This document shows positions 2,329-64,000 of a DNA stretch of 64,000 nt, in pieces. Source of the DNA: Bacilli bacterium. GTDB taxonomy: Bacteria > Bacillota_I > Bacilli_A > RF39 > UBA660. Positions within the stretch are counted from its first letter, which is position 1; the number at the start of each line of letters is the position of its first letter. Below the pieces are notes generated by a model. That model saw only the letters and a program-made list of their open reading frames with translations. It made no database searches and had not been told where the DNA came from. Made by a program: the position numbers and the translations under genes. The DNA is taken from NCBI GenBank assembly GCA_017941235.1, contig JAGAWU010000057.1, forward strand, positions 1 to 64,000. The letters are read 5' to 3'.

Positions 2329-4497
2329 TTGAAAAAGAAAAAGAGGAGAAATAATGTTAAATATGGAAAGATATTAATTATTTTTTCTCTTTTTTTGTTT
2401 GGCTTAATGATATTTAGATTAATTCAACTTTCTACATCTAAAGAAATAGATGATGTTAATTTACAAAAACTTGCTAATAGTAGAACTACACGTACAGATA
2501 AATTAGAAGCTAAACGTGGTACAATTTATAGTACTAATGAAGATATTTTAGCTCAGAATGTTACTTCTTATAAATTAATTGCATATTTATCTAAGTCTAG
2601 AACTACAAATAATAAAAAGCCACAACATGTTGTAGATAAAGAATTAACAGCTGAGAAACTTGCTCCTATACTTGGAATGGAGAAAGAAGATATATTAAAA
2701 TATTTAAGTAAAGAGAATCTTTATCAAACAGAGTTTGGAAGTCATGGTAGGGGACTTTCTGAAATACAGAAACAAGAAATAGAAAATTTAAATTTACCAG
2801 GTCTTGATTTTATAGAAAGTTATAAAAGATACTATCCTAAAGGTAATTTTCTTTCTTATACTTTGGGATATGCTACTACTAAGATAGATGATAATGGTAA
2901 TTCAGTTATTAATGGTAAGATGGGTCTTGAACTTTATTATGATAACATATTAAAAGGCGAGGATGGTTTTGTTACTTATCAGAAAGATTTAAAGGGATAT
3001 AAGATAAGTGGAACAAACGAAGTTAGAAGAGAAGCTGTGCAGGGTAAAGATATTTATCTTACTATAGATAGTAATGTTCAATTCTTTGTGGAACAAGCAC
3101 TTACTAATTGTAAGAATAATTTTGGTTATGAATGGTTTACAATGGTTATAATGGATGCTAAGACAGGGAAAATACTTGGTCTTTCTTCTAATCCTAATTT
3201 TGATTTAAATACTCGTGAAAATATAACTAATTATTTAGATTTAACTATTGCACTTCCTTATGAACCTGGTAGTACTATGAAGACTTTTACTTATATGGCT
3301 GCTATGGAAAATGGTGTTTATGATGGCAATAAGACTTATAAATCTGGTACTTATGTAACTGGTGATGGTACTGAAATTGGTGATTGGAATAGAAATGGTT
3401 GGGGGTATATTACATATGATAAGGGGTATGCTTTATCTAGTAATGTAGGTGTTATTAATTTACTTCATAACTTTATGAATGCTGCTATGCTTAGACAATA
3501 TTACAGAAAACTTGGGTTTGGTAAAAAGACAGGTATTACACTTCCTAATGAAAGTACTGGAAAACTTGGATTTAAATATGAAACAGAAATATATAATGCT
3601 GGTTTTGGACAAGGTATTACTACAACACCTTTACAAAATGTTCAAGCTATGACACCACTTACTAATGATGGAATGTTACTTAAACCTTATATAGTTGAAA
3701 AGATTATAGATCCTGATACAAAGGAAGTTATATATACAGGTAAAAGGACTGAAAAAGATCGTGTTGCATCTACTCAAACTGTACAAAAAATGATTAGTTT
3801 GATGGATGATACAGTAAATGGTATAGGTAATACTGGCTCTGGGTATAGAATAGATAGTGGTGAACTTATTGGTAAAACGGGTACAGCTCAAATTGCTCGT
3901 GATAATGGTGGAGGATACTTAAATGGAAAAGAAGATATAATTTCATCTTTTTCGGGTGTTTATCCTAAATCTAATCCAAGGTTTATAATTTATGCTTCAG
4001 TTAAAAGACCTTCTGGTGGAAGTCAAAAAGGTATTTCTACCGCTGTTAAAGAAGTTGTAAGTAATTTATCTAAGTATTATGGTACTGAAGTAACCGAAAC
4101 TCAAGGTGAAGAAATATTTACTTATAAAATACCTAATTTTGATAATAAGAAAGTTGAAGATGTTAAAAATATTCTTAATAATAATAAAATGTATAATCAA
4201 GTTGTAATTGGTGAAGGTAATAAAGTTATTAAACAATATCCTTATAAAAATAGTAGTATTACTAATAAGGATAGAGTATTCTTAATTACAAATGATTCTA
4301 ATCTTAAGTTAATGGATTTAAATGGATATTCTAGTAAAGAAGCTAAGGGAATACTTGAACTTTTGGGTATGAAAGTTAAACTTACTGGTAATGGTTATGT
4401 TACTGGACAGAGTGTAGAAGCTGGTACTGTAATAACTAATGGTATGAGTATAGAACTTACTTTAAATCCAAAATTTGATGCTAATAATGCTAATTAA
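2329..4497 (+). CDS. ftsI: Class B penicillin-binding protein (division transpeptidase) with PASTA domains
   Basis: A 722-residue transpeptidase for septal peptidoglycan cross-linking. It has a membrane anchor near residues 13-33, a PBP dimerisation domain (about 55-225) and a transpeptidase domain with all three active-site motifs: STMK at 315-318, SSN at 370-372 and KTG at 516-518. The last ~140 residues contain two PASTA-like repeats, as in Bacillus PbpB and SpoVD. The start is TTG 2329 with AAAGG at 2313-2317; no better ATG exists. It follows ftsL by 18 bases in the mraZ cluster. mraY, murD and ftsW do not follow, so the dcw cluster is short here. Confidence 0.93.
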   Translation: MKKKKRRNNVKYGKILIIFSLFLFGLMIFRLIQLSTSKEIDDVNLQKLANSRTTRTDKLEAKRGTIYSTNEDILAQNVTSYKLIAYLSKSRTTNNKKPQHVVDKELTAEKLAPILGMEKEDILKYLSKENLYQTEFGSHGRGLSEIQKQEIENLNLPGLDFIESYKRYYPKGNFLSYTLGYATTKIDDNGNSVINGKMGLELYYDNILKGEDGFVTYQKDLKGYKISGTNEVRREAVQGKDIYLTIDSNVQFFVEQALTNCKNNFGYEWFTMVIMDAKTGKILGLSSNPNFDLNTRENITNYLDLTIALPYEPGSTMKTFTYMAAMENGVYDGNKTYKSGTYVTGDGTEIGDWNRNGWGYITYDKGYALSSNVGVINLLHNFMNAAMLRQYYRKLGFGKKTGITLPNESTGKLGFKYETEIYNAGFGQGITTTPLQNVQAMTPLTNDGMLLKPYIVEKIIDPDTKEVIYTGKRTEKDRVASTQTVQKMISLMDDTVNGIGNTGSGYRIDSGELIGKTGTAQIARDNGGGYLNGKEDIISSFSGVYPKSNPRFIIYASVKRPSGGSQKGISTAVKEVVSNLSKYYGTEVTETQGEEIFTYKIPNFDNKKVEDVKNILNNNKMYNQVVIGEGNKVIKQYPYKNSSITNKDRVFLITNDSNLKLMDLNGYSSKEAKGILELLGMKVKLTGNGYVTGQSVEAGTVITNGMSIELTLNPKFDANNAN

Positions 4498-16824: not shown

Positions 16825-17821
16825 GAAAAAGTGTCTTGGATGTGGAGTAACATTACAAGATGAAAATGTGCTCTTGGAGGGTTATACAGTAAATTTAGAG
16901 AATGACTTGTGTCAGAGATGTTTTAGATTAAAAAATTATGGTGAATATCAATCTACTACTAGAACTAATGAAGAATATAAAGAAATTCTTGAAAATGTAG
17001 GTAAGACTAAAGATTTAGTTATTTATGTTACAGATTTACTTAATATAGAACAAGATTTATTTAATATAAGAGAATTTCTTCCGAATAAAATACTTCTTGT
17101 TTTGAATAAAAGAGATGTAATTCCTAGAAGTGTAAAAGATGAAAAAATAATTAATTATTTTAAAGAAAAATATGACTTCTTTGTTGATATAGTAGTAGTT
17201 AGTAGTGAAAAGAATATTAATTTAGATTTACTTCTTAGAAGAATTAAATTTTTCCAAGTTACTAAAAATGTATATGTTTGTGGCCAAACTAATGCAGGTA
17301 AGAGTAGTTTAATTAATAGACTTATTAAAAACTATTCAGAGAGTAAGCAGGAACTTACAATATCTCCAATTCCATCAACTACTCTTGATTCTATAACTAT
17401 AGAAATAAATGATCATCTTACTATAATTGATACTCCTGGATTGATTGATGAGGAAGCTATTACTAATTATGTTTCTGAAAAAGAATTAAAGAGTATTCTT
17501 CCTAAAAAAGAAATTAAGCCTAGAACTTATCAAATAAAAGCTGGTCAATCTCTTTTAATTGGTGATCTTGTTAGACTTGATTATATAGAAGGCGAAAAGA
17601 ATAGTTTTACTTTATATATGTCTAATAGTATTAAAGTTAAAAGAATTAGTTCTTTAAGAAATGATAGTTTGAAGAATTTATCTAAGAGAACTTATCAACT
17701 TCCTTTTAATCAAGATATAGTTATTAAAGGACTTGGATTTGTTAAAATAGTAAATAGAGGAGTAGTAGATATGTATCTTAACCAAAGAGTTGGTACATTC
17801 TTAAGAGATAATTTAATATAA
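16817..17821 (+). CDS. yqeH: Ribosome-biogenesis GTPase YqeH
   Basis: The 334-residue protein is a circularly permuted GTPase needed for 30S subunit assembly. It begins with a treble-clef zinc motif (CLGCG and CQRC). The G motifs then come in the permuted order: G4 NKRD, G5 VSS, G1 GQTNAGKSS and G3 DTPG. A C-terminal RNA-binding part follows. ATG 16817 directly precedes the zinc motif and follows AGAGG; the upstream TTG is not needed. Downstream Bacillus partners (aroE, yhbY, nadD) are absent here. Confidence 0.94.
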   Translation: MNEKKCLGCGVTLQDENVLLEGYTVNLENDLCQRCFRLKNYGEYQSTTRTNEEYKEILENVGKTKDLVIYVTDLLNIEQDLFNIREFLPNKILLVLNKRDVIPRSVKDEKIINYFKEKYDFFVDIVVVSSEKNINLDLLLRRIKFFQVTKNVYVCGQTNAGKSSLINRLIKNYSESKQELTISPIPSTTLDSITIEINDHLTIIDTPGLIDEEAITNYVSEKELKSILPKKEIKPRTYQIKAGQSLLIGDLVRLDYIEGEKNSFTLYMSNSIKVKRISSLRNDSLKNLSKRTYQLPFNQDIVIKGLGFVKIVNRGVVDMYLNQRVGTFLRDNLI

Positions 17822-17840
17822 AATTTAGATTTGTTTTAGA

Positions 17841-17863
17841 AGCAGTTGTATAACTGCTTTTTT
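17841..17863 (+). terminator. Terminator of yqeG-yqeH
   Basis: AGCAGTT (17841-17847) pairs with AACTGCT (17852-17858) around a 4-base loop, followed by T residues. Confidence 0.88.
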
Positions 17864-17864
17864 A

Positions 17865-17893
17865 TTGACTTAAAATAGTGTTAATGTTATAAT
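17865..17893 (+). promoter_or_regulatory. Strong promoter of the 17918 gene
   Basis: TTGACT (17865-17870), 17 bp, TATAAT (17888-17893). It lies directly behind the yqeH terminator. Confidence 0.88.
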
Positions 17894-17917
17894 ATGCAAA
17901 CAGAGAGAGGGGTTAAA

Positions 17918-18913
17918 ATGAATATAGATAGTTTCCTTGATGAATATAAATTTATTAGTGATTTTTATAAAGTTGTTTATAGTCCTGAATATGTTAGTTT
18001 GAGTAAAGATGAGAAAAAAGAAGTATTAATTAGACTTATAGAAATTAATACACAGAGAAAAAATAGTGATATTATTAAAAGACTTGAAGGGAATTTAGAA
18101 CTTTCTATTTCTTCTAAATATGAGGAAAAAGAAGTTTTAAAGGATATAGCGCGTCCTAAAAGGGTAAAGCAAAGAAAGTTTGAAGATGTTAATATTAATC
18201 CAATTTTAGAATGTAGTTCAATAGAACAAATGCTTTCTTTAGGACTTATACCTAAAAAAGAGGATGAAGAATCCTTAAAGAAAATTCAAAAAATATTACT
18301 TACTATAGTTCGTGAAATTGAAGAATATAAATTACTTCAAGTAGAAGAAGAAAGTGATTTTTTTGATGAAGAAATTGAAAAACTAGAGAATATATTTGAG
18401 ATAATAAGTGATTATGCATTTTATGAAGAAAATGTAGAGATAGAAACTCAGAGTGATTTTTCTGTTGTATATTTACCTAATAATTTATGCTTTGGTGATG
18501 ATAATAATTTTTCACCTTTATATAAAGATATAGAAAAAAATAAAAAACAAGAAGTACTTGTTTCTATGATTGATTCAATTAAAAATCAAGAATTTAAAGG
18601 TTTAAAGAGATTTGGTAATCATTTTTCTGATTTTTATGAACTTAGAAATGGGCAACAAAGAGTAGTTTTTAATTTTATTACTCCTAAAATTGCAGTGGTA
18701 ATATTTGCGTTTACTAAGAAAGTTGATAATGATAAGAAGTATAGAATGGAACTTTCTAATAGAATAAAAAAATATAGAGGAATGAAGTCTCAATTAAAAA
18801 AGGTATTTAAAGATGAAAAATTTATATCAAAACAAATAGATATTGATACAGCTATTTATGGGTTAATTCATAAAGAAAAAAGCCTTGTAAAAGTAGGTGA
18901 AGATAATGAATGA
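17918..18913 (+). CDS. Unrecognised protein with a C-terminal RelE/HigB-like domain
   Basis: The protein has 331 residues. The first ~210 are acidic and helical with no known domain. The last ~100 resemble the RelE/ParE/HigB (phage Gp49-like) toxin fold: LKRFGNHFSDFYELR, then GQQRVVFNFI, KIAVVIFAFTKKVDN and a final Arg-rich helix. In toxins of that family such residues build an mRNA-cleaving or gyrase-targeting domain, but whether this domain is active cannot be told. No small antitoxin gene follows. Instead, a 638-residue gene overlaps its end by 8 bases. ATG 17918 follows GAGAGGGG. The start and expression are well supported; the function is open. Confidence 0.65.
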   Translation: MNIDSFLDEYKFISDFYKVVYSPEYVSLSKDEKKEVLIRLIEINTQRKNSDIIKRLEGNLELSISSKYEEKEVLKDIARPKRVKQRKFEDVNINPILECSSIEQMLSLGLIPKKEDEESLKKIQKILLTIVREIEEYKLLQVEEESDFFDEEIEKLENIFEIISDYAFYEENVEIETQSDFSVVYLPNNLCFGDDNNFSPLYKDIEKNKKQEVLVSMIDSIKNQEFKGLKRFGNHFSDFYELRNGQQRVVFNFITPKIAVVIFAFTKKVDNDKKYRMELSNRIKKYRGMKSQLKKVFKDEKFISKQIDIDTAIYGLIHKEKSLVKVGEDNE

Positions 18914-53249: not shown

Positions 53250-54088
53250 TGATGAAAATTAATAATTTTTTAGATGACTTTAGAAATAGAATATATATGG
53301 CTTTTTTTCCATATTTAAATAAGAATGAAGATGAAATTGATTATGATGATATATTTGGAAAAATAGAATTAATTTCTAATAATGAGGCATATTATAAACT
53401 TTTTCTTTCTGTATTATTTTTAGATGATTATAGATTAAAATTAAGATATTTAATAAATAATCAAGCTACTGAAAGTGATAAAGAAACATTAGAGTTTTAT
53501 GATAATAATATAAAAAGTATAGACGATGTAATTGATTATATAGATAATGATGGAGATATACTTGATATGATTAATTCTACACTTGTTTTTACTAATTTAA
53601 AGAAGAGTTATCAAAGAGAAGTTCTTACTTGTTCTTGGATTAAAAATGATTATTTAAAGAAAGTTACACCACTTCATATATTAGATTTGTTTTATTATAG
53701 TTTTCCAATATCACTTGATAACTTTATTGAATTATTTAATGAATATAATGAAGAAGAAAATAGTTTAGATGCTAGTGGTGAAGCTACTGTTGAATTTTCA
53801 AAAGTATTAACTGATTTATATAATTCAGATTTAGATAATTATAAGAAATTAACAGATGAATTAGTGGAAACATATAAGATTATGAAATATCATAAAATAT
53901 TTGAGGATGAGGAACTCGATAAGTTTGTTTTGAAGAAGGATATAGATTTATATCAATCTTTATATACAGATTCACATATAAGAATCAAAATATTAGATTA
54001 TTTTTTGGAGTATAGTGTACTTTGTAGTAAAGAAGAAAAAGATTCATTTAAAGATGAGTATATTAAAGTTAGAAAGAATAAAAGATAG
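53249..54088 (+). CDS. Unrecognised protein, second of a tandem paralogous pair
   Basis: The 279-residue product is a paralogue of the preceding protein (NFLDDFRNR; YLKKVTPLHILDLFYYSFPISLDNF). It is acidic and helical, with no known domain. Two adjacent ATG codons (53249 and 53252) can serve as start. The first overlaps the upstream stop by one base, which suggests coupled translation and a possible hetero-complex of the two proteins. The capsule gene cpsB follows after 10 bases. Confidence 0.62.
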   Translation: MMKINNFLDDFRNRIYMAFFPYLNKNEDEIDYDDIFGKIELISNNEAYYKLFLSVLFLDDYRLKLRYLINNQATESDKETLEFYDNNIKSIDDVIDYIDNDGDILDMINSTLVFTNLKKSYQREVLTCSWIKNDYLKKVTPLHILDLFYYSFPISLDNFIELFNEYNEEENSLDASGEATVEFSKVLTDLYNSDLDNYKKLTDELVETYKIMKYHKIFEDEELDKFVLKKDIDLYQSLYTDSHIRIKILDYFLEYSVLCSKEEKDSFKDEYIKVRKNKR

Positions 54089-54098
54089 GGGGGATAGT

Positions 54099-54809
54099 AT
54101 GATAGATATTCATTCACATATAATGTTTGGTATAGATGATGGTAGTAAAGATATAGAAACATCTATGGAAATACTTAGAGATGCATATAAGAATGGGGTT
54201 ACAGATATAATTTTAACTCCACATTATATAGAAGATAGTAAATATACTTGTAATAATATAGAAAAAGGGAAAATACTTAAAAAATTACAATATACGCTAA
54301 AAAAAGAAAATATAGATATTAATTTATATATTGGTAATGAAATATTTATAAATGAAAATATTTCAGATTATATTAAGAAAAAAGAAATAGCACCACTTAA
54401 TAATTCAGAGTATATATTAGTAGAACTACCTATGGGAAGAATGTATAATAATACTAAGTCAATATTTTTTGAATTAATTAGAGAAGGTTATACAGTAATA
54501 CTTGCTCATCCAGAAAGATATAGATATATGCATAAAAATCAAGAAAAACTTGAAGAATTATTAGAGATGGGTGTACTTCTTCAAGGAAATTATAGAAGTT
54601 TATTTGGTTATTATGGTAAAGATGCTAAAAAAGCTTTACAAAAATTAATAAAGAAAAAACAAATTAGTTTCTTAGGTAGTGATATACATAAGAATGATGG
54701 ATATAATTTAAAAAAATTAGAGAAGGAGATACTTAGACTTTCTAAAGATAAAGAATATACAGAAAGTATAATAAATGGGAATGCTAAAGATATTTTGAAG
54801 AAAAATTAA
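54099..54809 (+). CDS. cpsB: PHP-type tyrosine-protein phosphatase CpsB
   Basis: CpsB is a manganese-dependent phosphatase of the PHP superfamily that dephosphorylates the tyrosine kinase CpsD and so tunes capsule length. The 236-residue protein has DIHSHI at the start, TPHY near residue 44, the NEIF segment, ILAHPERY near 130 and GSDIHK near 190, which together supply the metal ligands. ATG 54099 follows a run of six G. It sits upstream of cpsC-cpsD, separated from them by a small membrane gene and a terminator. Confidence 0.92.
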   Translation: MIDIHSHIMFGIDDGSKDIETSMEILRDAYKNGVTDIILTPHYIEDSKYTCNNIEKGKILKKLQYTLKKENIDINLYIGNEIFINENISDYIKKKEIAPLNNSEYILVELPMGRMYNNTKSIFFELIREGYTVILAHPERYRYMHKNQEKLEELLEMGVLLQGNYRSLFGYYGKDAKKALQKLIKKKQISFLGSDIHKNDGYNLKKLEKEILRLSKDKEYTESIINGNAKDILKKN

Positions 54810-55158: not shown

Positions 55159-55188
55159 AGTGCTTGCTAATTGAAGGGGAGTGTATTT

Positions 55189-55851
55189 GTGGAAGAAATC
55201 AATTTAGTTGAAATATTTAGTTATTTCAAATCAAAGATAGTACCAATATTAATAGTAATAGGAGTAATACTAGTTGTTGGTAATATTTATTCAATATTTT
55301 TAAAAACACCTATGTATCAAAGTAACACTACAGTATTATTAGTTAATAGTAAGAATAATAATACAACTGAGTTACAACTTAATAAAAACTTAGTTACTAC
55401 TTATACTGAAATTATTAAGAGTCGTAGAGTATTAACTCAAGTAATAAAAGAAGGAAAACTTGATTGTAGTGTAGCTGAACTATCTAATATGATAAGTGTA
55501 GAAGCAGTAGGAGATACTGAACTTATTAGAATTACAGTTAAAAATCCTAATAAGAAAAAAGCTTCTATAATAGCTGATCAAATAGCTGATACTTTTATTA
55601 AAGAAATAAAAGATTTATATCATTTAGAGAATGTTAGTGTTGTAGATAAAGCTATAGTAAATAATAATGCTTATAACATTAACTATTTAAAAGATAATAT
55701 TATATATTTAGGAATAGGAATAGTACTTACATTTGGTATAGTATTTGTTATGTATTATTTCGATACTACTATTAAATCAACAGAAGTAGTTGAAAATAAA
55801 CTTGGTTTAACAGTAATAGGAATTGTTCCTGAAGAAAAGGATAGGGGGTAA
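55189..55851 (+). CDS. cpsC: Polysaccharide chain-length/kinase-modulator protein CpsC (Wzz family)
   Basis: The 220-residue protein has two membrane helices (about residues 18-40 and 172-193) flanking an extracytoplasmic Wzz domain (LKTPMYQSNTTVLLV near 45). It ends in a short cytoplasmic tail that activates the separate kinase CpsD. GTG 55189 is chosen because AAGGGGAG lies at proper distance; TTG 55171 precedes that site. It is the first gene behind the cps promoter and is followed after 5 bases by cpsD. Confidence 0.92.
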   Translation: MEEINLVEIFSYFKSKIVPILIVIGVILVVGNIYSIFLKTPMYQSNTTVLLVNSKNNNTTELQLNKNLVTTYTEIIKSRRVLTQVIKEGKLDCSVAELSNMISVEAVGDTELIRITVKNPNKKKASIIADQIADTFIKEIKDLYHLENVSVVDKAIVNNNAYNINYLKDNIIYLGIGIVLTFGIVFVMYYFDTTIKSTEVVENKLGLTVIGIVPEEKDRG

Positions 55852-56621: not shown

Positions 56622-57296
56622 ATGAATGAAGCAGTTGTAGATACTAGCTTAGTTGAGGAAAGAAGTTCAGTAAAAGAAAAAATGTATTTTGGTATTAAAA
56701 GAGCATTTGATATATGTGTATCTTTAGTAGGTATGTTATTCTTAATACCAAGTGTTATTTTTGTAAAACTTGCTTATTTATTATCTGGAGATTTCCATAC
56801 AATATTTTATTCTCAAAAGAGAATTGGTAAAGATGGAAAAGAATTTAAGTTTTATAAATTTAGAAGTATGCTTGTAGATAGTGAAGGGATACTTGAGAAT
56901 ACACTTAAGATGGATCCAATAGCAGCTGATGAATATAAAAGAACTAAGAAACTTAAAAATGATCCTAGAATTACTAAAGTAGGGAGATTTATAAGAAAAA
57001 CTTCTATAGATGAACTTCCACAATTAATTAATATATTTAAGGGTGATATGAGTTTAATAGGTAATAGACCTTATTTACCTAGAGAAAAAGAAGATATGGG
57101 ACCTTTCTATAACTCAATTATTAAGACTAAACCAGGACTTACTGGTTATTGGCAAGTAAATGGTAGAAGTAATACTACTTTTGCTAAAAGATTAGAATTA
57201 GAAAGCTATTATTCTAATCATTGTGGTTTAAGAATGGATATAAAAATATTCTTTAAAACATTTACTGCAGTATTATTTCATAAAGGTGCAGAATAG
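56622..57296 (+). CDS. Undecaprenyl-phosphate sugar transferase (initiating glycosyltransferase)
   Basis: The 224-residue protein belongs to the bacterial sugar transferase family (PF02397), which loads the first sugar-phosphate onto undecaprenyl phosphate. It has an N-terminal membrane segment (about 30-52), KFYKFRSM, DPRITKVGRFIRKTSIDELPQ with the catalytic Asp-Glu pair, SLIGNRP, and the C-terminal PGLTGYWQVNGRS. The large N-terminal membrane domain of WbaP/CpsE is lacking, so it is the short type. Which sugar is moved cannot be read from sequence. Confidence 0.93.
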   Translation: MNEAVVDTSLVEERSSVKEKMYFGIKRAFDICVSLVGMLFLIPSVIFVKLAYLLSGDFHTIFYSQKRIGKDGKEFKFYKFRSMLVDSEGILENTLKMDPIAADEYKRTKKLKNDPRITKVGRFIRKTSIDELPQLINIFKGDMSLIGNRPYLPREKEDMGPFYNSIIKTKPGLTGYWQVNGRSNTTFAKRLELESYYSNHCGLRMDIKIFFKTFTAVLFHKGAE

Positions 57297-57793
57297 TGTT
57301 AAAATTAGTTGATGTAACTCCTAGTGATGATGAATTATTAAAGGTTAGAATAATGATGTATGAAGAGCCAGGAATTAGAGAAGTCTTTAATGGTAGAGGA
57401 GATAGACTTGCTACTAGTCATAAAGTATATATTATTATGAATGATAACCAAGAAGTTGGGTTTGCAAATTTAGTATTTGAAAAACAAAATTATGATTTTT
57501 ATTTCTTAGATATGGGAATAAAAGAAAATTATAGAGGTAAAGGTATAGCAACAGAAGTGTTACAAACCTTAAAAAATATTAATTCTAAACCTATTATAAT
57601 TGAAACTAGAGAGAATAATACTTTAGCTAATTGTTCTGCTGAAAGAATAGGTTGTATGTTAATGAGTAAAGATAATAAAAACTATTATTTATTACAGAGA
57701 GAACATTATAATGAATTTATAGATAATGGTTATCTTGATAAATTAACTGAACATTTAAACGAAGATAAAGATAAAAGATTTTTATATAAATAA
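57296..57793 (+). CDS. GNAT-family acetyltransferase
   Basis: The 165-residue protein has the GNAT fold with the acetyl-CoA loop YRGKGIATEVL near residue 81 and the preceding beta strand FYFLDMGIKENYRG. The substrate is unknown; in this locus it may acetylate an amino sugar. It starts with GTG, sharing one base with the upstream stop codon, with AAAGGTG before it. The last ~20 residues are highly charged. Confidence 0.82.
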   Translation: MLKLVDVTPSDDELLKVRIMMYEEPGIREVFNGRGDRLATSHKVYIIMNDNQEVGFANLVFEKQNYDFYFLDMGIKENYRGKGIATEVLQTLKNINSKPIIIETRENNTLANCSAERIGCMLMSKDNKNYYLLQREHYNEFIDNGYLDKLTEHLNEDKDKRFLYK

Positions 57794-57820: not shown

Positions 57821-57868
57821 AAAAGATACACATTAAGATTATCCTTAATAGATGTGTATCTTTTGTTT
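57821..57868 (+). terminator. Strong terminator inside the cps locus
   Basis: AAAAGATACACAT (57821-57833) pairs with ATGTGTATCTTTT (57852-57864). An inner TAAG/CTTA stem is present and a T-rich tail follows. It separates the acetyltransferase gene from the glycosyltransferase start, so later cps genes need readthrough or antitermination. Confidence 0.85.
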
Positions 57869-57885: not shown

Positions 57886-57942
57886 ATGAGAAAGAAAAAT
57901 GAACCAATTAGAATAGCACAAATTATAGGTAAATGTGTCTAG
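57886..57942 (+). pseudogene. Glycosyltransferase gene fragment, cut off after 18 codons
   Basis: A good ribosome site (AGAGGGGTGAG) and ATG 57886 open a frame reading MRKKNEPIRIAQIIGKCV and then a stop at 57940-57942. This is the typical N-terminus of family-1 (GT4) capsule glycosyltransferases, where IGxxVxGGVE normally follows. The expected GGVE and the rest of the ~370-residue protein are absent in all frames. The gene is therefore interrupted at this point, most simply by the element that follows. Confidence 0.8.
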
Positions 57943-58029
57943 GCGTTCGTAGACGAGAAATCGAATGTCAAAAAATCCCTGAAAATAAAGGGAAAACAAA
58001 AATTGCAAATTTTCATATTTTGAAATATG

Positions 58030-58051
58030 CAGTCAAAAGAAGACTGTTTTT
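58030..58051 (+). terminator. Terminator in the element's left end
   Basis: CAGTC (58030-58034) pairs with GACTG (58042-58046), followed by five T. Confidence 0.6.
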
Positions 58052-58246
58052 ATTTTGGCAAAATTCGAGAGTCTTATGTAGTAGATAATCTCTAACATAC
58101 AACTTATACAAAAATATATAATTAAAAAAATAATAAAATCCTTAAGATTTTAAACAAAAAATGAATCTATTATTTTTACTCCTTTCAAGTGGATAATAAC
58201 TAATAGACCTTAAATTGTTAAATGTGTAATTATAGTGAAAAAAACA

Positions 58247-58280
58247 AGTAGTCTACAATGAATATTTAGACTGCTTTTTT
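58247..58280 (+). terminator. Terminator before the element's first gene
   Basis: AGTAGTCTA (58247-58255) pairs with TAGACTGCT (58267-58275; one G-U pair), followed by T residues to 58280. Confidence 0.78.
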
Positions 58281-58340
58281 ATTTGATAGATTAGAAGTTA
58301 TAAATATAATTCTCATTCTCTCATAGATAGGAAGGAAAAA

Positions 58341-58763
58341 ATGGAGAATAAAAAAGGAGATAAAGAATTAGTATTTATGCTATATAATTATCCAAATATA
58401 GATAAACTAATTGAAAATAGAAAACTAGAAATAATAGACAAAGTAAATACTAGTTATAACGAATGGAGTAAAGCTAAACATTCATTGTATACAAATACTT
58501 TAGAAGATATTATTGAAAGAATTGATTCGGATAAAACAATAAGTAGATTGAACAAATGGAAAAATATAATAGAAAAATTCCTAGGTGGTATTAGTTATAA
58601 CGACATGATTAAAAGATTTGTTACTAACAAGTATTTTTTTAATGGTTCCACAGAAGAAGTAATGAAAACATTAAAGATTAATTATGATGAATATTATTTT
58701 CTAGATCAAATAACAAAAAAAAGTTTATATAGATTATGTGAAAAAGAAAAACTATATGTATGA
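58341..58763 (+). CDS. Possible ArpU/RinA-like regulator of the element
   Basis: The 140-residue helical protein ends in a sequence resembling a sigma-region-4-like helix-turn-helix: KYFFNGSTEEVMKTLKINYDEYYFLDQITKKSLYRL, read in parts. That arrangement recalls the ArpU/RinA late regulators of phages and related elements. The similarity is weak, so function is tentative. ATG 58341 follows AGGAAGGA. Its last 4 bases overlap the open frame of the next gene, so it is the first gene of the element's operon. Confidence 0.5.
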   Translation: MENKKGDKELVFMLYNYPNIDKLIENRKLEIIDKVNTSYNEWSKAKHSLYTNTLEDIIERIDSDKTISRLNKWKNIIEKFLGGISYNDMIKRFVTNKYFFNGSTEEVMKTLKINYDEYYFLDQITKKSLYRLCEKEKLYV

Positions 58764-58774
58764 AAGGAGTAAAA

Positions 58775-59572
58775 ATGACACCAGCAGGTGAAGTTCGAGT
58801 ACACAAGAATAATGGATATACTATTATTCCTAATGAAATACTTAGAGATATGAATTTATCATTAAAATCTAAATCATTACTTAGCTTAATGTTGAGCTTA
58901 CCTGATGATTGGGATTACACTGTAGCAGGACTAACTAAACTTGTGAAAGAAGGATATGATTCTGTTGATTCAGGAATTAAAGAATTAATTAAGTTTGGTT
59001 ATGTTTATAGAGAAGAATCTAGAAAAGAAAGAGGATATTTTAAATATATTTATCATATATTTGAAAGTCCTAAAGATAACTATTTTTTAAACAAAAATCA
59101 ACCGGTGGGGGAAAAACGGGTAGCCGTTAAACGGATAGCCGAAAAAACCGAACAACAAAATAAAGATTATAAAAAAGATATAAAAGATAAATATGATAAA
59201 ACTCAAAATGAAAATATTAATCATAATATTTTAACCAAAGAACTGATTAAGCTAAACTACATTGATAGTGATGACGAATTTAGTTCTTTTAATTTTGATA
59301 ATTTATTTCATAAATATCTATCTGAAGGAAAAAGTTATTTAGAACTGTTTACTAGCATTCATTATATAGTATCTAGAGTAAAAGGAAATAATTATACGGA
59401 CGAAGATGGAAATGAGATAAAAAATCGTTATTCATATTTTAAAAATGCCATTGAATCAAATTTTGAAAGATTAGATAACCAGACAGATGAAATTTGGTCA
59501 GAGGCAGAATTAACAAAAATGTTAGAAGAATTTAAGATTAAGAAAAAAGAAGAAGGTGATTTATATAGATGA
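58775..59572 (+). CDS. Winged-helix replication-initiator-like protein
   Basis: The 265-residue protein starts with a winged-helix domain of the kind found in replisome organisers of phages and conjugative elements (GYTIIPNEILRDMNLSLKSKSLLSLMLSLPDDW, then DSGIKELIKFGYVYRE, residues ~14-80). A polar linker near residues 110-145 is encoded by unusual GC-rich repeats, and a helical C-terminal domain follows. ATG 58775 is preferred because AAAGGAG lies 6 bases before it. Its stop overlaps parA by 4 bases, which fits a replication-partition operon. Confidence 0.7.
   Translation: MTPAGEVRVHKNNGYTIIPNEILRDMNLSLKSKSLLSLMLSLPDDWDYTVAGLTKLVKEGYDSVDSGIKELIKFGYVYREESRKERGYFKYIYHIFESPKDNYFLNKNQPVGEKRVAVKRIAEKTEQQNKDYKKDIKDKYDKTQNENINHNILTKELIKLNYIDSDDEFSSFNFDNLFHKYLSEGKSYLELFTSIHYIVSRVKGNNYTDEDGNEIKNRYSYFKNAIESNFERLDNQTDEIWSEAELTKMLEEFKIKKKEEGDLYR
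59116..59141 (+). repeat. GC-rich direct repeats in the initiator-like gene
   Basis: ACGGGTAGCCG (59116-59126) and ACGGATAGCCG (59131-59141) repeat with 15-bp period inside the linker-coding part. The surrounding 59101-59150 contains ACCGG and AACCG and is far richer in G+C than its neighbourhood. Origins located within rep genes carry such iterons; here this is inference. Confidence 0.6.
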
Positions 59573-60399
59573 AATGCCAAGTACTAGCTATAGCAAATCA
59601 AAAAGGTGGAGTTGGGAAAACAACAACTACATTTAATCTTGGAGTTGCATTGGCACATAGTGGGAGAAAAGTATTATTAATAGATGCAGATCCACAAGGA
59701 GATTTAACTACTTACATGGGGTGGCATAATGCTGATAATTTACCAGTAACTTTGTCTACAATAATGAGTAGATGTATAAACGATATGGATATTAATTCTG
59801 AAGAAGCAGTTCTTCACCATAATGAAGGGGTTGATTTAATACCAACTAATTTGGAACTTGCTTCATTAGAAGTAAGTTTGGTTAATGCAATGAGTAGAGA
59901 ATCAACAATGAAAAATTGTATTGAAGAATTAAAACAAAAATATGATTTTATTTTAATAGACTGTATGCCTTCACTAGGAATGATTACAATAAACGCTTTA
60001 GCTAGTGCTGATAAGGTAATTATACCTGTTCAATCAGAATTCTTAGCTGCAAAAGGAATGAATCATTTAATGAATACTATTATGAAAGTTAGAAAAAACA
60101 TCAATAAGGAATTGGATGTTTCTGGAATTGTTTTAACTATTGTAGATGGTAGAAGAAAATTATCAAAAGAAATAACTGAAGAGTTAAAAGAAACATATGG
60201 AAAAGTATTCAAAATATATGATACACAGATTCCTAGAGCAGTAAAAGCAGCAGAATCATCTAGAATGGGAGAGAGTATCCTTTCTTATGACAAAGATAGT
60301 AATGTTGCAAAAAGTTATATTGAATTAGCAAAGGAGGTTTTAAACGATGAGCGAACAAAGAATAAAACAAGAGATTCCCATGAACTTCAATCTAGATGA
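59569..60399 (+). CDS. parA: ParA-family partition ATPase
   Basis: The 276-residue protein is a ParA/Soj ATPase with the deviant Walker A KGGVGKTT at residues 12-19, LLIDADPQGDLT near 37, Walker B FILIDCMPSLG near 125 and VQSEFLAAKG. It moves plasmid or element copies to daughter cells together with ParB. No N-terminal DNA-binding extension is present (type Ib/Soj-like size). It overlaps the initiator-like gene by 4 bases and the parB gene by 53 bases. Confidence 0.94.
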   Translation: MKCQVLAIANQKGGVGKTTTTFNLGVALAHSGRKVLLIDADPQGDLTTYMGWHNADNLPVTLSTIMSRCINDMDINSEEAVLHHNEGVDLIPTNLELASLEVSLVNAMSRESTMKNCIEELKQKYDFILIDCMPSLGMITINALASADKVIIPVQSEFLAAKGMNHLMNTIMKVRKNINKELDVSGIVLTIVDGRRKLSKEITEELKETYGKVFKIYDTQIPRAVKAAESSRMGESILSYDKDSNVAKSYIELAKEVLNDERTKNKTRDSHELQSR

Positions 60400-62035: not shown

Positions 62036-64000
62036 ATGAAAAGGAAAATAACAGGACTATTGTTATTATTAATTACAATAGTTGGTGTAGTTTTTGGCAT
62101 TACTAAAGTTAATGCTGAAAGCTATCAAGGAACAATAAGAGAGGGAGCTTGGATTCCTGGATATTGGATAAGTAAAAAAGATGGTAGCACAATAAGTTAT
62201 CATCAAGCTAGATGGCTTAACAATTCAGAAGGAGAAGCAATATATTGTATTCAACCATACGTACGAATTGTAGATGGAACGACATATACTATTACAAATG
62301 AAGATATGCAAATACTTGCGGGATTATCTCAAGAACAATGGCAGATGGTTACAAGATTAGCATATTATGGTTATGGATATAATGAAAATGGATATAATCA
62401 TAGTGATGCAAAATGGTATGTAGCAACTCAAATGTTAATTTGGAGAACAGTTGATCCAGCAAGAGCAAATGATATGTATTTTACTAATGGACTAAACGGA
62501 ACAAGAAACGATAGTATTTTAGTAAGTGAAATGAATGAAGTAAAAGCACTTGCAGAATCTCATTCAGCTAGACCAAATTTAAATGTACCAAGTGAAGCTA
62601 TAATTGGAAATGAATTTAATGTTTCAGATAGTAATGGAGTATTAAATAAATTTAGAGTAACTAATGTAACTGGAGGAACTGCTAGTATTAATAACAATAC
62701 TTTATATGTTAATCCAACTGAAGTAGGAGATATGAAAATAACATTATCTCGTGAAGCTAATATGGCTCATAAAACAATTTATTTATACTTTGCTACTTCA
62801 TCTCAAAACTTAATGAGAAGAGGAGACTTAGATCCAATTAACATTAATCTAAATGTTAAAGTTTTAGGTGGTAAAGTAACAATCAATAAAGAAGATAAAG
62901 TTACAAAAGAAGCACAAGGAGAAGCTACTTTAAAAGGTGCTACTTATGGTATTTATGATGAATCTGGAACATTAATAGATAAAATAACTACTGGTGATGA
63001 TGGAAAAGTTACATCTGGATATCTTCCTAAATTAGGTAAGTTCTACTTACAAGAAATATCTCCAAGTGAGGGTTATAAATTAGATAATACAAAATATGAT
63101 TTTGAAACTACTAAAGACAGTTTAGAGCCATCTGTAACTGTTAAAGAAGAAGTAATTGAGAATCATTTTAATTATGTAAAAGTATATGCTAGTGATGAAA
63201 CAGGAGTTATGACTCCAGAAGAAAATGTTGATTTCGCAGTATATAATAAGAACAATGAATTAGTAATGAATTTAACTACTGATAAAGATGGAATTATTAA
63301 TTTCAAATTACCTTATGGAACATATACATTAAAACAAATGACATCTCCAAAAACACATAAGAAAATGGAAGATTTAACTTTAACAGTTAAAGAAGCTGAT
63401 GTAAAAATTAATAAAGTTATTTCAAATGGAGAATATAAAGCAAAACTAAGAGTAGTTAAAATTGATAAGGAAACTAAAGAAGTAATTAAAAGAGCTGGAA
63501 TTAAATTCAAAATATTAGATACTAAAACAAATGAATATGTATGCCAAACAACATCATATCCAAAAGCTACTATTTGTGAATTTGAAACAGATAAAAACGG
63601 AGAATTTATAACTCCATTTGTACTTAATAGTGGAACTTATAAATTAGAAGAAGTAGATCAAAAAATAGATGGTTATTTATGGAATAAAGAATCTCATGAA
63701 TTTACTATTGATGAAGATGCTAATTTAAGAACTGATTCTGAATATGGAGTAATATTTGATACCGATTTTGAAAATCAAAGAGTTAAAGGTGAAATAAAGA
63801 TTGAAAAAGTTGGTAACAATGTTCAAGTTGCAGAAGAAGGATTGATACTATTCCAAGAACCATTAGAAGGTATTAAATTCTGTGTATTTACTAAAGATGG
63901 TAAAGAAGTTAAATGTGGAACTACTGATAGTGAAGGACATTTAACATTTAAAGATTTAGAATTAGGAGAATACTATGTTCAAGAAATTGAAACATTAGAA
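62036..64000 (+). CDS. Thioester-domain and Cna-B-repeat surface adhesin (3' end outside window)
   Basis: The open frame from ATG 62036 (TTGGAGG before it) encodes 655 residues up to the window end. A signal peptide ends near Ala27 (TKVNA). The next ~250 residues form a thioester domain with Cys71 in YCIQP and Gln132 in TQMLIW, positioned to form an internal Cys-Gln thioester that can bond covalently to host surface amines. At least four SpaA/Cna-B domains follow (about 280-370, 381-455, 467-570 and from 583). They show LKGATYGIYD, LQEISPSEGY and LEEVD type motifs that supply the Lys and Glu of isopeptide bonds. A sortase motif is expected beyond the window. Confidence 0.9.
   Translation, partial: MKRKITGLLLLLITIVGVVFGITKVNAESYQGTIREGAWIPGYWISKKDGSTISYHQARWLNNSEGEAIYCIQPYVRIVDGTTYTITNEDMQILAGLSQEQWQMVTRLAYYGYGYNENGYNHSDAKWYVATQMLIWRTVDPARANDMYFTNGLNGTRNDSILVSEMNEVKALAESHSARPNLNVPSEAIIGNEFNVSDSNGVLNKFRVTNVTGGTASINNNTLYVNPTEVGDMKITLSREANMAHKTIYLYFATSSQNLMRRGDLDPININLNVKVLGGKVTINKEDKVTKEAQGEATLKGATYGIYDESGTLIDKITTGDDGKVTSGYLPKLGKFYLQEISPSEGYKLDNTKYDFETTKDSLEPSVTVKEEVIENHFNYVKVYASDETGVMTPEENVDFAVYNKNNELVMNLTTDKDGIINFKLPYGTYTLKQMTSPKTHKKMEDLTLTVKEADVKINKVISNGEYKAKLRVVKIDKETKEVIKRAGIKFKILDTKTNEYVCQTTSYPKATICEFETDKNGEFITPFVLNSGTYKLEEVDQKIDGYLWNKESHEFTIDEDANLRTDSEYGVIFDTDFENQRVKGEIKIEKVGNNVQVAEEGLILFQEPLEGIKFCVFTKDGKEVKCGTTDSEGHLTFKDLELGEYYVQEIETLE

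What the first reader, a model, noticed from the sequence alone, without database searches (positions are those of the whole stretch)
57886..57990. Capsule glycosyltransferase gene interrupted after 18 codons by an inserted element
Seen: a well-initiated frame encodes the GT4-type N-terminus MRKKNEPIRIAQIIGKCV and stops at 57940. No frame continues with the expected GGVE motif. From there on the genes are rep-like, parA, parB and a Cna-B adhesin instead of capsule synthesis genes. A GTCTA-N8-TAGAC inverted repeat lies at the junction. Inference: the conserved IGK-V-GGVE coding sequence of this glycosyltransferase is the attachment site, so capsule synthesis could be switched off by insertion and restored by excision.
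Basis: partly seen in the sequence, partly recalled or inferred. Interest (0 to 1): 0.82.

Follow-up and report, generated by a model that had tools for sequence, protein, structure and literature searches.

The report
Mobile element inserted in capsule gene
A self-transferring DNA element has inserted at a precise codon of a capsule-sugar gene in an uncultured bacterium and carries its own set of capsule-sugar genes; relatives of the element sit in capsule genes of other bacteria too, so it may swap one bacterial coat for another rather than merely switch it off.

Summary
A GT4 gene is cut after its 16th codon (host DNA up to the dinucleotide TG at 57934-57935), and everything rightward is an integrative and conjugative element (ICE). 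A congener has the gene intact at the same locus. A near-identical ICE in another genus is joined to the same codon of a homologous gene, so the site is a real attachment site. The ICE runs to about 98.6 kb of the contig (about 40.7 kb). It has par genes, an SSB, a relaxase, a CD1110/CD1115-type (Tn1549-like) transfer apparatus, a ten-gene polysaccharide cluster and four tandem large serine recombinases. The rest of the GT is not at its right end, nor found in the assembly; the right end lies in a truncated surface-protein ORF. The "excision restores the gene" idea is therefore not supported here. Three relatives sharing the outermost recombinase clade also carry polysaccharide clusters and sit in capsule genes; one is complete, bounded by two different capsule genes. 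Best reading: a lineage of capsule-cargo ICEs that integrate into capsule operons and substitute host capsule genes. How the two ends come to lie in different genes is unresolved.

The parts
54015..54809 (+). host capsule locus: CpsB/CapC-type phosphatase
   Evidence: PF19567, E 1e-60
55171..55851 (+). host capsule locus: Wzz chain-length protein
   Evidence: PF02706
55857..56609 (+). host capsule locus: Wze/CpsD-type kinase
   Evidence: ORF and synteny with G003
56622..57296 (+). host capsule locus: priming sugar transferase
   Evidence: PF02397, E 2e-62
57296..57793 (+). host capsule locus: GNAT acetyltransferase; ortholog directly precedes the intact GT in G003
   Evidence: PF13508; 43% to G003
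57821..57864 (+). hairpin between GNAT and GT genes (AAAAGATACACAT...ATGTGTATCTTTT), stem also present in G003
   Evidence: fold -19.1 kcal/mol; same stem with a different loop in G003
57886..57942 (+). 5' fragment of GT4 glycosyltransferase (16 host codons plus 2 codons from the junction, then TAG)
57934..57935 (+). inferred crossover core TG of attL (first two bases of the Trp codon of IGK-W-V-GGGVE)
   Evidence: three-way comparison G000/G316/G003
57936..58340 (+). left terminus of the ICE, non-coding
   Evidence: 249/250 nt identical to G316:C14 over the first 250 nt
58341..58763 (+). ICE ORF of unknown function (140 aa)
   Evidence: 96% in G316; no Pfam
58760..59572 (+). ICE rep-like HTH_36 protein
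   Evidence: PF13730 just under cut-off; identical in G316
59569..60399 (+). ICE ParA
   Evidence: PF13614
60347..61318 (+). ICE ParB
   Evidence: PF02195
61369..61989 (+). ICE ORF of unknown function (206 aa)
   Evidence: 92% in G316
62036..64000 (+). ICE thioester/SpaA (Cna-B) adhesin, runs off the window to C35:64507. The rest of the ICE lies beyond the window on the same contig (same numbering): SSB 65983, relaxase 66960, VirD4 69074, VirB4 74473, NlpC/p60-like 77229-78905, polysaccharide cluster 79237-89333, sigma-like 90823, serine recombinases 92109-98494, right end 98.5-98.7 kb
   Evidence: PF17802, PF08341

Best explanation
An ICE of the CD1110/CD1115 (Tn1549-like) transfer type integrated, by a large-serine-recombinase reaction at a TG core, into the Trp codon of the conserved IGK-W-V-GGGVE motif of the GT4 gene that follows the priming transferase in the host capsule operon (shown: junction, independent second junction, intact relative). 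The ICE carries a polysaccharide cluster with its own promoter and leader (GT2, GT4, acyltransferases, Wzy-like, pyruvyltransferase, Wzx, FrhB-like, UDP-glucose dehydrogenase) but no priming transferase (shown). The host CpsB-Wzz-Wze-priming genes upstream stay intact (shown), so the new cluster can use them to make a different polysaccharide (inferred). The host GT and what followed it are no longer joined to the element: its right end lies in another gene (shown in the assembly). The net outcome is therefore substitution of the downstream host capsule genes by the element's set rather than a reversible interruption (inferred). Three related ICEs with the same outermost recombinase show the same association of capsule cargo with a capsule-gene site (shown).
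For: Junction. The transfer genes give equivalog-level NCBIfam matches over cut-off to conju_CD1110 (VirB4, 1026 bits against 325) and conju_CD1115 (VirD4, 527 against 250); relaxase PF03432, ParA, ParB and SSB. Cargo position: in sister ICEs the region between the NlpC/p60-like gene and the sigma-like gene holds variable cargo (ABC transporters, tetracycline-resistance-type GTPase, others), so the capsule cluster occupies the cargo slot of the ICE. Cargo identity. Recombinases: Resolvase + Recombinase + Zn-ribbon domains in all four. Relatives: G276 right end in the 3' part of a priming sugar transferase, with its own complete PF02397 enzyme in the cargo; RUG11250/G410 right end in an FrhB-like capsule gene; RGIG6622/G409 complete element between a truncated priming transferase and a different gene, followed by Caps_synth, GT2, Wzy-like and Wzx genes. 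The outermost recombinases of these four form one clade, 100/100 support. All four capsule-cargo elements have an end in a capsule gene (for G000 the left end only); five sister ICEs with other cargo (G354 next to rbgA; G397, G090, G281, G140 next to other non-capsule genes) do not (one-sided exact p = 1/126). No second contig carries either junction sequence of G000.
Against: G000's right end lies in a surface-protein ORF, not a capsule gene, and cannot be placed better than 98.5-98.7 kb. No reads were available; the MAG is 91% complete with 6% contamination, so the contig could be chimeric or the missing GT half unbinned. Whether other Wzx/Wzy genes of the host exist elsewhere in the genome was not tested. 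Host capsule genes remain to the right of the element in G409 and G410, so replacement there is partial at most. The first capsule-like cargo gene of G409 (priming transferase) appears frameshifted.
Confidence: 0.72

Rival explanations
1. Simple reversible insertion: the ICE silences the GT and excision restores it; the 3' half of the gene exists but is missing from the assembly because of fragmentation or strain mixture.
For: Serine-recombinase ICEs normally leave both halves of the target at the two ends. Ambroset et al. (PMC4701971) suggest that ICEs disrupting genes may excise when those genes are useful. The MAG is incomplete.
Against: The contig continues past the recombinases into another gene; no GT 3' half is found in the assembly with protein, motif or Pfam searches; no second contig carries the ICE termini. 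An independent complete element (G409) also has its two ends in different genes.
Confidence: 0.15
2. Assembly chimera: the GT left flank and the surface-protein right flank come from two insertion sites of the same ICE, or from two strains, joined through the shared ICE sequence.
For: Metagenome-assembled genome with 6% contamination; a near-identical ICE occurs in another genus (97% at its left end), so identical ICEs in one sample are plausible.
Against: A 40-kb repeat with two flanks on each side should break the contig at its ends, yet the contig is 133 kb; no alternative junction pieces are in the bin. The 609-kb G409 contig shows the same pattern.
Confidence: 0.15
3. The polysaccharide genes at 79-89 kb are the host's own capsule operon, and the ICE is only the 57.9-79 kb part, inserted between the GT and the rest of the operon.
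For: The cluster follows the transfer genes directly and has a capsule-type leader like the one before the GT in G316.
Against: The sigma-like gene and recombinases that end this ICE type lie to the right of the cluster; G276, G316:C38, G409 and G410 have the same order (transfer genes or their last gene where visible, polysaccharide genes, recombinases, with a sigma-like gene before the recombinases in all but G409) with host capsule genes outside the recombinases in G276, G409 and G410. No GT 3' half lies at 79 kb.
Confidence: 0.06

Closest known systems
ICEs of the Tn1549 / C. difficile CTn type (CD1110 VirB4, CD1115 VirD4)
   Same: Transfer proteins are members by curated NCBIfam cut-offs; modular backbone with a variable cargo slot.
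   Different: Carries a polysaccharide cluster and sits in a capsule gene; four serine recombinases.
Streptococcal ICEs with triplets of serine integrases (Ambroset et al. 2016, PMC4701971)
   Same: Tandem large serine recombinases at one end, insertion inside and disruption of a gene, very short shared core, conservation by position of the outermost recombinase.
   Different: Reported targets are mutT, traG and hsdM; that paper's main text does not mention capsule or polysaccharide. Here 3-4 recombinases, capsule-gene targets, and ends in two different genes.
SCCcap1 of Staphylococcus aureus
   Same: A serine-recombinase (Ccr) element that carries a capsule gene cluster (capsule type 1; PMC2040198 and own knowledge).
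   Different: Integrates at orfX, not in the capsule locus; not conjugative (own knowledge). The outermost recombinase here scores far below the CcrA/B/C cut-offs (132 bits against 900 for CcrB).

Membership tests
CD1110/CD1115 (Tn1549-like) ICE | VirB4 of CD1110 family and VirD4 of CD1115 family over curated cut-off | tested here: met
   1026 against 325 bits and 527 against 250 bits
CD1110/CD1115 (Tn1549-like) ICE | MobA/VirD2-type relaxase | tested here: met
   PF03432, E 5e-42
CD1110/CD1115 (Tn1549-like) ICE | self-transfer by conjugation | not testable with these tools
   only gene content; recent spread is suggested by high protein identity of most ICE genes, VirB4 99%, with another genus
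Serine-integrase-array ICE (Ambroset type) | several adjacent large serine recombinases, same orientation, at one end | tested here: met
   four, 92109-98494, all three domains each
Serine-integrase-array ICE (Ambroset type) | insertion within a gene with both halves at the two ends and a 2-8 bp repeat | tested here: not met
   left half present with TG core; right end is not the other half
SCC elements | CcrA/B/C recombinase over cut-off and orfX site | tested here: not met
   outermost recombinase: CcrB 132/900, CcrC 127/900, CcrA 92/700 bits; site is a GT gene

The most novel reading that the evidence does not exclude
The recombinase array performs a two-site exchange: different recombinases of the array act on different sites of the recipient's capsule region, so the ICE enters with its two ends in two different genes and removes the host segment between them, a conjugative, site-directed capsule swap.
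Probability: 0.22. Interest if true: 0.9.

Novelty: new variant of a known kind. Interest (0 to 1): 0.7.

Why it matters
Capsule loci are among the most exchanged loci of bacteria, and homologous recombination is the usual explanation. An ICE lineage that brings a capsule cluster and integrates inside capsule genes would be a dedicated vehicle for coat exchange between genera, including lineages with no known transformation. It would also give a concrete test bed for the open question of why some ICEs carry three or four serine recombinases.

Tried and rejected
The 5-bp inverted repeat as a signal: rejected, 28 comparable repeats per kb. Pattern search for an intact IGK-C-V-GGVE gene in all species representatives: no hit (pattern too strict). 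ICE left terminus in viral contigs: none; in 386 genomes of the family only G000 and G316. Relaxase in viral contigs: no relative. Placing the right end by similarity to other right ends or by codon usage: inconclusive. Rfam on the cargo leader: nothing near a gathering score. Full-length homologs of the right-flank surface protein: only C-terminal matches in three genomes, so its missing N-terminus could not be sought. A common attB consensus across the GT, sugar transferase, FrhB-like and G409 right-end sites: TG followed a few bases later by (T/A)GG can be drawn, but the right-hand junctions are not exact enough to claim it.

Full report
The window is the first 64 kb of a 133-kb contig (C35) of a 1.56-Mb low-GC genome in 57 contigs, 91% complete.

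Observation. The short frame starts at 57886 and stops at 57940-57942. It follows CpsB, Wzz, Wze, priming sugar transferase and GNAT genes. In a congener (G003) the same gene order continues into an intact GT4 beginning MSKKNEPIRIAQIIGKWVGGGVEAVVMNYYRHID, then Wzy-like, GT2, pyruvyltransferase-like and Wzx genes (the last names from sequence look). In G000 the Trp codon TGG has become TGT and the sequence diverges from there.

Attachment site. G316, another genus of the family, holds a near-identical ICE (VirB4 99%, relaxase 97%). Its left terminus is joined to MRSKKTEPIRIAQIMGNC-, the same codon of a homologous GT whose upstream DNA is unrelated. Left of the junction the two are 38/48 identical, right of it 249/250; against G003 the figures are 42/48 and 13/40. 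The only bases compatible with both comparisons are TG at 57934-57935. The site is therefore used by the element and is not a random break.

The element. From 57936 rightward, in contig coordinates: rep-like, parA, parB, Cna-B/SpaA adhesin, SSB 65983, relaxase 66960, VirD4 69074, VirB4 74473, NlpC/p60-like 77229-78905 (a working label by position and sequence look; no NCBIfam match), a polysaccharide cluster 79237-89333, YaaC-like 89390, sigma-like 90823, four large serine recombinases 92109-98494. VirB4 and VirD4 pass the NCBIfam cut-offs for the CD1110 and CD1115 families. In sister ICEs the slot after the p60-like gene holds other cargo, which places the polysaccharide cluster inside the ICE. 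The cluster has its own leader (ACAGGTACTA-n-TAGTACC plus a promoter-like site) resembling the one before the host GT of G316. It lacks a priming transferase, which the host still has intact at 56622.

Right end. The recombinase array is followed at 98.5-98.7 kb by an open frame of a surface protein with no start of its own, then non-capsule genes, a YfhO-like membrane protein, an LCP protein, LexA and PolA (labels other than LCP from sequence look). The GT remainder is not there, not elsewhere on the contig and not found in the assembly. No other contig carries the junction sequences.

Relatives. A genome-wide scan with the outermost recombinase, made without regard to site, gave RUG11250 (= G410) and RGIG6622 (= G409); the family search gave G276. 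All three carry polysaccharide clusters next to the recombinases. G276 ends inside the 3' part of a priming transferase and carries a complete one as cargo. G410 ends inside an FrhB-like capsule gene followed by Wzx-like and UDP-glucose dehydrogenase genes. G409 is complete in a 609-kb contig: left end in a host priming transferase cut at IIGPRPYL, right end in the last ~33 codons of a different gene, then Caps_synth, GT2, Wzy-like and Wzx genes. The outermost recombinases of G000, G276, G409 and G410 form one clade with 100/100 support, next to single recombinases of other elements; the inner ones are more diverged. G316:C38 shows polysaccharide genes, sigma-like gene and two recombinases at a contig end, consistent with a fifth member. 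Five sister ICEs with other cargo sit next to non-capsule genes, G354 next to rbgA.

Interpretation. Shown: capsule cargo, capsule-gene sites and one recombinase clade go together. Shown in the two elements with both ends visible: the ends lie in different genes. Inferred: entry of such an ICE substitutes part of the recipient's capsule genes. Possible routes are insertion followed by deletion of adjoining host DNA, a second recombination at another site by a different recombinase of the array, or, for G000, misassembly. The evidence does not separate these.

Literature. Ambroset et al. (PMC4701971) describe ICEs with serine-integrase triplets that disrupt mutT, traG and hsdM; their main text does not mention capsule or polysaccharide. 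SCCcap1 is a capsule-type-1-associated cassette element, a class that integrates at orfX (PMC2040198). Nine text searches of an open-access library found no report of a capsule-gene-targeting, capsule-carrying ICE; most subscription papers are not in that library.

Noticed in passing
window 57821-57864 and G003:C16 (L025, L041): A long hairpin (AAAAGATACACAT...ATGTGTATCTTTT) lies between the GNAT and GT genes in both genomes, with the stem kept and the loop different.
   Followed up: partly
window 58297-58327 and C35:91679-91710 (L008): A ~31-bp sequence (TTATAAATATAATTCTCATTCTCTCA) near the ICE left end recurs inverted just upstream of the recombinase array, at 94% identity.
   Followed up: no
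C35:98681-110117 (L009): Right flank: LPXTG-like 958-aa surface protein without N-terminus, DUF1016-type nuclease, RhuM/Fic-like protein, YfhO-like membrane protein and LCP protein; part of this may be another island.
   Followed up: partly
G316:C14 21641-24053 (L114): After the p60-like gene the near-identical ICE runs into a second rep/parA/parB set (parA 83%, parB 77%), suggesting a tandem or composite element.
   Followed up: no
G140:C3 (L116) and G006:C5 (L121): Sister ICEs carry a Tet(M)-type ribosomal-protection gene with a PadR-like regulator, in G140 in the same cargo slot and in G006 upstream of the relaxase.
   Followed up: no
G409:C14, cargo priming transferase (L175 about 17789-18700): The cargo copy of the priming transferase in the complete G409 element appears frameshifted near its conserved GPRPYL motif.
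   Followed up: partly
L008 about 4000-4236 and L113 560-850: Shared leader of capsule-type operons in two genera: promoter-like site, ACAGGTACTA-n-TAGTACC-T-run attenuator-like hairpin, second promoter-like site, conserved ribosome-binding region; no Rfam family.
   Followed up: partly
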